From Gadus chalcogrammus (lineage: Eukaryota; Chordata; Actinopteri; Gadiformes; Gadidae), in NCBI RefSeq assembly GCF_026213295.1, contig NC_079422.1, positions 25,334,218 through 25,398,217 on the forward strand: a stretch of 64,000 nt of DNA, in the 5' to 3' direction. How positions within the stretch are numbered: position 1 is the stretch's first letter; the number at the start of each line of letters is the position of its first letter. The translations under genes and the position numbers were made by a program. Positions 4,260-63,666 of the stretch are shown here, in pieces. The notes beneath the pieces are model-generated. The model was not told where the DNA came from. It made no database searches and was given only the letters and a program-made list of their open reading frames with translations.

Positions 4260-7200
4260 ATGTTCTCGGCCCTGAAGAAGCTGGTGGGGTCCGAGCCGGG
4301 ACAGCTCAGGGACAAAAACATTCCCGCTGGCCTGCAGTCCATGAACCAGAGTCTGCAGCGCCGCTTCGCCAAGGGAGTCCAGTACAACAGTAAGACAGAT
4401 CTGTATTGGCTCTATGTGAAGAACTGACCGCATACTGTCAGAGCTGTGTAGCGCTCAATCCTGCATAGATGATATCACGTGTTGCTTGTGTCTGTCCGTT
4501 CATGTTTACATGTCATGGGGTTATATAACATTATGAAGCAGTAAGGGCGGTGAAATCTCTAGACCAAGAAGGCCAAGAGCGGTGTATTGTGGACACTGGG
4601 GTGCAAAGCTGTGGTTCAGGAATTTGGCATGTAAATAAAACGCCTGAACCTCTCGAGTCTAAACTATCCAACCCCCTTCCATCCTGATGTGATTCAATCA
4701 CGAGTAGTTGTGTGCTGCCTCCCTATTCTAGTGCTATTACTGTATTATTGTAGATCTTATTTTTTATTTGTATTGGCTGTCACTGTGTTTTCATTCTCAC
4801 CACTGTGCTCTATTTCTGAGACACCCTCATGGCTCTCTGAGATTGATCCTCTTGTTTTGGTTCTTTGATAATGCTTTTGGGTACAATGGTGAATTTGGCA
4901 GTGGTTTCTGAGTTATTCACAAGTCAATGCCAAGCCAGCCTTTGTTCCCCCAGTGAATATAGTGGTTTGGTTTCCCAATAAATATACTGGTTCTGTGTTT
5001 CCCCAGTGAAAATAGTGATTCTGTGTTTCCCAGTGAAGATGCTGGGTCTGTTTCCCAGTGAAGCTAGTGTATTTGTTTCCCAGTGAAGCTAGTGGTTCTT
5101 ATGTTTCCCAGTGAAGATACTGGTTCTGTGTTTCCAGTGAAGATAGTGGTTCTGTGTTCCAGTGAAGATACTGGTTTTGTGTTTCCCCAGTGAAGATACT
5201 GGTTCTGTTTCCCAGTAAAGATACTGGTTCTGTGTTTCCCAGTGAGGATATTAGTTCTGTGTCCCAGTGAAGATACTGGTTCTGTTTCCCAGTAAAGATA
5301 GTGGTTCTGTGTTTCCTAGTGAGGATATTAGTTCTGTGTCCAAGTGAAGATACTGGTTCTGTTTCCCAGTGAAGATACTGGTTATGTTTCCCAGTGAAGA
5401 TACTGGTTCTGTTTCCCAGTGAAGATACTGGTTCTGTTTCCCAGTGAAGATACTGGTTCTGTTTCCCAGTGAAGCTAGTGGTTCTGTTTCCCAGTGAAGA
5501 TACTGGTTCTGTTTCCTCCCAGTGAAGATACTGGTTCTGTTTCCCAGTGAAGCTAGTGGTTCTGTTTCCCAGTGAAGATACTGGTTCTGTGTTTTCCCAG
5601 TGAAGATAGTGATTCGCGGGGACAGGAACACGGGAAAGAGCACCCTATGGCACCGACTTCAGGGGAAGAAGTTCCTGGAGGAATACCTGCCCACGCAGGA
5701 GATCCAGGCGACCAGCATCCACTGGAACTACAAAAGTAAGTCCAGTCATGTCTCAACTTGACCACAGGTCGCACCACTACTCTTTTCTTTCCTGGCATCT
5801 ATTTGGTCATTGTTTTTTTTTTACAACTTCTGTGTATTGTTTTCAGTGGCCCCGTACCAAGGTAGGCCAACCCATTCAGTCTAGGGTGCTAGTGTTTAGC
5901 TAGTCGTCTCATTCGAGTTCAGCTAACCATTTAGCTCCCCTATGTTTCTCTGTGTAGTAGTGACAGTAGTCATATAACTAGATAGTCTTTATCAATAATT
6001 GTTCCCTGCTGCTGAAACCATCACTGTGTCAAGGTAAAGTAAAATGATTCAGAACCGGTCCCACACTAATTATTGCATCATGTCCTCTTGGCGTAGAACA
6101 GCATTCGTGTTTTGATTGTGTGTTTAGTATAGATGGTCACGGCCTCTTCCCTTGTTTCTCTCAGCTACGGATGACGTGGTCAAGGTAGAGGTTTGGGACG
6201 TTGTGGACAAAGGTGAGTGTCGGCCCGTCAGAACAAGAGTTCACCATCACTCACTCACCGTCTGTCAAGTCGTGACAAATGTCCATTTTTTTTTTTTTTT
6301 TTTTATCACCGTGTCAATCAATGTTCCTCTTTTGTTTGCATTCAGAGCCACACATCCTCTCTGATCATGTTGATGTACCTCTCTATCGCACCCTATCTCA
6401 CTCTCTCTCTCTCTCTCCTCTCTGTATCACAATGGCACTCACCCAAGGCCAGAAATATCCTCTTCTTGATGGTAGGTGATCGCTGTGGTGTGTAGAATGC
6501 GTCGTCGTGGCTTGTGAACCGTGGTTAACCTTCCCTACCTTTTCATTCCTCTCACTATCAAAGACAAAGATTGTTTCAGTGCTGCCTGCTAACCTCCGTT
6601 TGTAGTGTGACTACCACTAAAAAGGTTTGGCTGAAGCGCGACTGCCCTTGATAACGGTTGCCGCACTGACCTGACAATTAAAGAACGCATTCTGTTTAAT
6701 TGTCGTATTTTGGGCTGAACAAGCTATGCCAAAATAATGCATATCAACAAGTAACTCGGCCATAATGCTTTGCTTGCTTTTCATGCATTGCTCTTGAAAT
6801 AAAACTAGATTGTGAACCGAAAAGTGTTTTAATCTTCTGTGTTGGGTCTTCCTCTTGGCCTTCACCACGTCTGTTCTGCTGTTCCAGGCAAGGGAAAGAA
6901 GCGCGGCGAAAACTTGAAGATGGAGAATGAGACCCCGGAGGTGATTATCACATGACCGTCATGGGTTCTAGAAAAAAACAGAGGGAAAACTATAGATCTG
7001 GAATGTGGGTCAGCGAGCAACATGTGGTGTCGGCTTCACTCCTTCCTCCTTTTTATCCTAAATTATAAATGTTGGTCTCAGGTTTCCCTGTTAATCAGCC
7101 TTTAATCCAGAACACGATTGGCTATTTTTACTGATTAATTGTGTTGTGGCGTTCGCAGTCGGACGAGGTGGCGCTGGACGCAGAGTTCCTCGACGTCTAC

Positions 7201-63666: not shown

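What the first reader, a model, noticed from the sequence alone, without database searches (positions are those of the whole stretch)
4945..63195. Eight minisatellites are tandem copies of the splice junction they abut
In rabl6 (exons 2, 8), araf (RBD exon, exon 40224-40368, last exon), tetraspanin A (exon 3) and tetraspanin B (exons 2, 6), the intronic repeat unit contains the real splice site plus about 10-25 nt of the adjoining exon. Polarity is constant: at 3' sites the functional copy is last, at 5' sites first, so every extra copy falls inside the intron. Unit sequences differ at each site, so this is not a dispersed element. I infer repeated tandem duplication across exon-intron edges. 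Such duplications may be tolerated because either copy can still splice, which would lengthen introns and create decoy sites. Tandem duplication carrying splice motifs is a published model for intron gain; a whole class of junction-spanning minisatellites in one neighbourhood is, to my knowledge, not described.
Basis: partly seen in the sequence, partly recalled or inferred. Interest (0 to 1): 0.93.

Follow-up and report, generated by a model that had tools for sequence, protein, structure and literature searches.

The report
Repeat arrays that copy splice junctions
Eight repeat arrays in this genome, likely a fish's, contain copies of the exon edge they adjoin, but in the genes sampled repeat ends fall on exon edges about as often as on intron positions, so they are most likely ordinary repeat growth that splicing tolerates, a pattern already described in lancelets as 'mirages'.

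Summary
The best copies span 12-25 exon nucleotides. (1) The class is in print: lancelet 'mirages'. (2) It is not confined to this neighbourhood: 7 of 183 usable junctions elsewhere, 7 of 78 here. (3) Junctions are no clear hotspot: repeat ends on 14/261 junctions, 363/9015 intron positions; matched P = 0.68. A second method gives 7/277 and 325/11672. Exon interiors show 9/2254 at the stricter cut. (4) Constant polarity is geometry. (5) Splice sites of three araf host introns recur at the same positions in a raf1-like paralogue with no minisatellite found, which speaks against intron gain. Best account: dense minisatellite formation spills over exon edges and is likely tolerated because the innermost copy stays the working site. 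Only 2 of 65 canonical decoys would keep an open frame. Splicing itself was not testable.

The parts
4949..5615 (+). rabl6 exon 2 acceptor (5600|5601): array with unit of about 25 nt, 24 upstream copies with AG, up to 15 exon nt
9358..9945 (+). rabl6 exon 8 acceptor (9933|9934): 54-57 nt unit, 10 upstream copies with AG, up to 12 exon nt
33807..34305 (+). araf first RBD exon donor (33827|33828): degenerate unit of about 76 nt (TRF 34097-34288), exon-edge copies near 34148 (no GT) and 34294 (GT), up to 21 exon nt; outer limits approximate
40357..41199 (+). araf exon 40224-40368 donor: composite units (49-118 nt), 14 exon-edge copies of which 5 keep GT, up to 24 exon nt
47842..48560 (+). araf last exon acceptor (48560|48561): two exon-edge copies (47860 without AG, 47970 with AG) upstream of an array with 18 and 61 nt periods (TRF 48007-48544), up to 23 exon nt; outer limit approximate
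54892..55153 (-). tetraspanin A exon 3 donor (exon 55153-55227): 33 nt unit, two exon-edge copies over the cut (54926 with GT, 55061 without), up to 25 exon nt
58990..59280 (-). tetraspanin B exon 6 acceptor (58990): 30-41 nt unit, two exon-edge copies with AG; weakest of the eight, seen only with wider queries
62128..63204 (-). tetraspanin B exon 2 acceptor (62148): 54 nt unit, 21 upstream sites with AG among 22 matched copies, up to 21 exon nt

Best explanation
The eight arrays contain copies of the real splice junctions they adjoin, and they most likely arose because ordinary tandem duplication, dense in this genome's introns, now and then straddles an exon edge, after which the copy touching the exon is predicted to stay the working site and the others would lie in the intron as decoys. 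Shown: the copies and their exon content, similar rates of repeat ends at junctions and at intron positions, low rates inside exons, and araf splice sites shared with a paralogue. Inferred: slippage or unequal exchange as the mutational step, and exon definition (pairing of the nearest 3' and 5' sites across the exon) as the reason why the innermost copy wins and the duplication is tolerated.
For: Repeat ends: junctions 14/261, intron positions 363/9015, exon interiors 38/2228 at cut 14; 13/264, 279/9218 and 9/2254 at cut 16; matched resampling 12 of 231 observed, 13.2 expected, P = 0.68. Tandem Repeats Finder ends: 7/277 junctions, 325/11672 intron positions. Arrays of period 10 or more fill 15.5% of the window, 12.4% of the kinase loci and 6.1% of the raf and tetraspanin loci. 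Elsewhere in the genome there are cases from one extra copy (L014, about 58 nt) to several (L013, L045). Splice sites of three araf host introns (both sides for 2/3 and 14/15, the donor for exon 7) lie at the same places in raf1-like L041, where Tandem Repeats Finder lists only GT dinucleotides. 63 of 65 decoys would shift the frame or add a stop, so frequent use would break the proteins. In lancelets mirages are reported not to disturb regular splicing (passages of PMC3087553 and PMC3902484).
Against: In the window alone the rate is 7/78 (9.0%) against 115/2602 (4.4%) in its introns (matched P = 0.21), so a modest local or junction excess is not excluded; the 95% interval for all junctions is 3.0-8.8%. 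Exon interiors of the window are not clean at the looser cut (10/266, against 5/275 at cut 16). Outside the window all 7 cases are at 5' sites (7/92) and none at 3' sites (0/91), which plain spill-over does not predict; pooled with the window 10/132 against 4/129, P = 0.17. No transcript data: the working copy is inferred from reading frame and homology.
Confidence: 0.78

Rival explanations
1. Junctions are a mutational hotspot: something about splice sites (polypyrimidine tracts, R-loops, co-transcriptional processes) promotes tandem duplication there.
For: Window rate about twice its intronic rate (7/78 against 115/2602).
Against: Outside the window 7/183 against 248/6413, the same rate; the second method shows no excess overall (7/277 against 325/11672), though 4/80 against 100/3569 in the window.
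Confidence: 0.12
2. The arrays are kept by selection, for example to tune splicing or intron length through decoy sites.
For: At three 3' arrays matched copies keep AG in 24 of 24, 10 of 10 and 21 of 22 cases, with site scores as high as the real one in many; in human IFI6 repeat units are reported to serve as splice donors (passage of PMC4526556).
Against: The rate is not clearly above that of intron positions; 9 of 14 exon-edge copies at araf 40368 have lost GT; 63 of 65 decoys would break the frame; AG retention is also expected of young, homogenised arrays.
Confidence: 0.06
3. The arrays mark recently gained introns (tandem genomic duplication carrying AGGT).
For: Tandem genomic duplication is a supported route of intron gain (passages of the review PMC3443670).
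Against: Splice sites of three araf host introns sit at the same positions in a raf1-like paralogue; the duplicated segments include intron sequence. Not tested for rabl6 and the tetraspanins.
Confidence: 0.03
4. Assembly artefact.
For: Long arrays are hard to assemble; no reads were available.
Against: Copies within arrays have diverged, units differ from site to site, and further cases occur in other loci.
Confidence: 0.02

Closest known systems
Mirage minisatellites of lancelet genes (Adh3, globins BflGb6 and BflGb9, troponin C, PGBD5)
   Same: Tandem repeats that span an exon-intron boundary, at 5' or 3' edges, with splice signals in many copies (passages of PMC3087553 and PMC3902484).
   Different: Here in a likely fish, at 14/261 usable sampled junctions (7/183 outside the window), with periods of about 18-118 nt against 10-72 nt (Adh3) and 150-160 nt (globins) in those passages.
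Minisatellite of human IFI6 (6-16) that supplies several splice donors
   Same: A minisatellite whose units serve as splice donors (a passage and a reference title in PMC4526556; the original paper was not read).
   Different: There alternative use is reported; here use is unknown.
Internal tandem repeats at exon-intron boundaries of human genes in segmental duplications
   Same: Minisatellite expansion at exon-intron boundaries changes gene structure (passages of PMC2812944).
   Different: About half of those repeats lie in coding exons, and at boundaries they are reported to form novel introns; here existing introns would lengthen.
Tandem-repeat-rich codfish genomes
   Same: Unusually dense tandem repeats (passages of PMC5241972 and PMC5894186).
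   Different: The passages I saw deal with repeat density, mostly short repeats, and name no junction-spanning arrays; the word 'splice' does not occur in either text. That this genome is a codfish is my inference.

Membership tests
Mirage minisatellites | Tandem repeat unit spans an exon-intron boundary | tested here: met
   7 of 8 with the short query, the eighth with wider ones
Mirage minisatellites | Occurs at 5' and 3' boundaries | tested here: met
   3 donors and 5 acceptors in the window; outside it donors only, 7
Mirage minisatellites | Many, not all, copies carry AG/GT signals | tested here: met
   65 canonical copies in eight arrays; others have lost the signal, for example 9 of 14 at araf 40368
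Mirage minisatellites | Length instability between alleles | not testable with these tools
   one assembly, no reads
Mirage minisatellites | Regular splicing despite decoys | not testable with these tools
   no transcripts; only frame continuity for part of the joins
Intron gain by tandem genomic duplication | The host intron is new | tested here: not met
   splice sites of three araf introns shared with a raf1-like paralogue; the other five junctions were not tested

The most novel reading that the evidence does not exclude
Copying of splice junctions is a genome-wide, nearly neutral class of mutation in this vertebrate: about 4-5% of exon edges carry tandem decoy splice sites, which by extrapolation means thousands, and a unit can jump between paralogous genes by gene conversion, as the pair of discoidin-receptor-like loci suggests. 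That would make the genome a natural saturation experiment on how the spliceosome picks among near-identical sites.
Probability: 0.45. Interest if true: 0.62.

Novelty: new member of a known kind. Interest (0 to 1): 0.45.

Why it matters
It carries mirages from a few lancelet genes to a likely fish and gives a rate for them against intronic controls. If edges are hit about as often as introns, duplicating a splice site would cost little, which would mean that splice-site choice is robust to many decoys of equal strength. Arrays with up to two dozen similar acceptors are ready-made tests of splice-site choice, and a caution for gene prediction and for reading repeats at exon edges as intron gain.

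Tried and rejected
Hotspot reading: not supported after the matched intron control. A first control that counted every intron position whose 28-mer recurs locally (356/1472 in the window, 303/2128 in kinase loci, against 7/80 and 5/131 junctions) was set aside because long arrays dominate it; the fairer control asks for repeat ends. Polarity as evidence: rejected as geometry. Dispersed element: not supported by genome searches with three units (that search skips simple repeats and very common words). Intron gain: not supported for araf. The same class in fish: the rows listed showed none by title or abstract start; some searches listed 12 of 176, 12 of 170 and 20 of 80 papers, one search had too narrow terms and found nothing, and most subscription papers are not held, so this is no proof of absence.

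Limits: exons outside the window come partly from a small self-trained exon finder (16 of 17 window predictions exact, but those exons were in its training set) and partly from homology; kinase, raf and tetraspanin genes are not a random sample. Rows dropped: 8 predicted exons as duplicate or low-complexity, L046 as a near copy of L045, L059 as the window itself, low-complexity predictions; of 277 junctions 16 were unusable (12 with short flank or low complexity, 4 with a repeated exon body).

Full report
What is there. The window is a stretch of contig C11 in a genome of 630 Mb and 168 contigs; matches fell on contigs C1 to C23. Size, contig number and heavy tandem repeats suggest a codfish relative; that is inference, no call names the organism. 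Tandem Repeats Finder lists many minisatellites; merged arrays of period 10 or more cover 15.5% of the window. I placed exons of rabl6, an imp4-like gene, araf and two tetraspanins, the last two on the minus strand. Joined rabl6 exons 1-12 and araf exons 2-5 form open frames; araf 7 to 8 and parts of the tetraspanin chains do not, because exons or exon ends there are missing or approximate. Pfam finds Ras-like, RBD, C1, kinase and tetraspanin domains in the pieces given, and the araf kinase part aligns with RAF proteins across the last exon join. The names rabl6, imp4 and raf1 and the exon numbers are recalled, not from a call.

Check of the observation. Each junction (20 exon + 8 intron nt) was aligned with 1.5 kb of its own intron and with introns of the other genes. 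Seven of 80 scored 14 or more, each above all its non-cognate introns. At the 3' arrays of rabl6 exon 2, rabl6 exon 8 and tetraspanin B exon 2, matched copies kept AG in 24 of 24, 10 of 10 and 21 of 22 cases, many with a site score equal to the real one; at araf 40368 only 5 of 14 kept GT.

Is it more than chance, and compared with what? More than random similarity: yes. More than the local density of minisatellites would give: not clearly. I used three sets: the window, 69 predicted exons in loci found by a kinase family search, and raf paralogues with tetraspanin loci. For each junction and for intron positions 90-900 nt away I asked whether the edge segment is repeated in the distal flank while the next proximal segment is not. 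Junctions 14/261, intron positions 363/9015, exon interiors 38/2228; with one intron position drawn per junction, 13.2 expected against 12 seen (P = 0.68). At stricter cuts: 13/264 against 279/9218 and 9/2254; 10/265 against 225/9359 and 6/2261. Tandem Repeats Finder ends agree: 4/80, 2/138 and 1/59 junctions against 100/3569, 195/6134 and 30/1969 intron positions. The window is high (7/78) but not significantly different from the rest (7/183, P = 0.13). The data leave room for a modest excess or deficit at junctions (95% interval 3.0-8.8%).

Other cases in the genome. L014 has one extra copy of a segment across a 5' site; L016 has a copy beyond a CA run; L011 has two copies; L013 and L045 have several; L035 and L054 score lower. 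This looks like a series from fresh duplication to array.

Age and source. Splice sites of araf introns 2/3 and 14/15 and the donor of exon 7 lie at the same positions in the raf1-like L041, whose 8.6 kb show only GT dinucleotide rows at the cut used. At the araf sites the exon parts encode residues shared with paralogues, so the exon is probably the source and the array the derivative (inference).

How it likely works. Tandem duplication by slippage or unequal exchange makes two copies of a segment across a junction. The exon body stays joined to one copy only, so the extra copies lie on the intron side whatever the mechanism. If the spliceosome pairs the nearest sites across the exon, the mRNA is unchanged and the duplication is close to neutral, as lancelet mirages suggest. 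Of 65 canonical decoys only two, both at rabl6 exon 8 (9820 and 9877), would give an in-frame, stop-free insert, so frequent decoy use would be harmful. Duplications inside exons are presumably removed by selection, which leaves exon edges as the inner limit. Beyond the counts, this paragraph is inference.

Known or new. The same structure is described in lancelets, and related cases in humans. To my knowledge new are the number of cases in one likely fish, a rate with intronic controls, and the result that edges are neither clearly favoured nor clearly avoided.

Noticed in passing
L011 1696-1843 and L013 1696-1970 (C11:27.7 Mb, C8:0.26 Mb): Two discoidin-receptor-like paralogues whose matching stretches are about 81-84% identical share the last 42 exon nt, the start of the intron and a 62 nt mirage unit at 94-99% identity, while a third paralogue (L012) shows only the exon part; this suggests recent gene conversion that carried the array. 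Arrays on C23 and C12 resemble the unit at 73-85%.
   Followed up: partly
window 9820 and 9877: Two decoy acceptors of rabl6 exon 8 would add 38 or 19 codons in frame without a stop, the only such decoys among 65.
   Followed up: partly
kinase, raf and tetraspanin loci L001-L063: All seven junction copies outside the window are at 5' sites (7/92) and none at 3' sites (0/91), unlike the window (3/40 and 4/38).
   Followed up: partly
window 8129-8358: A GT-rich array starts directly at the donor of rabl6 exon 6 (8128) and its unit resembles the exon edge (14 of 18 exon nt in the 25+25 test, score 22, next 20); a possible ninth case, too close to background to call.
   Followed up: partly
window 38036-38436: A 10 nt unit repeated about 40 times (GCTCACCAGG) starts 18 nt behind the donor of the araf C1 exon; it matches intron sequence only, no exon nt.
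   Followed up: yes
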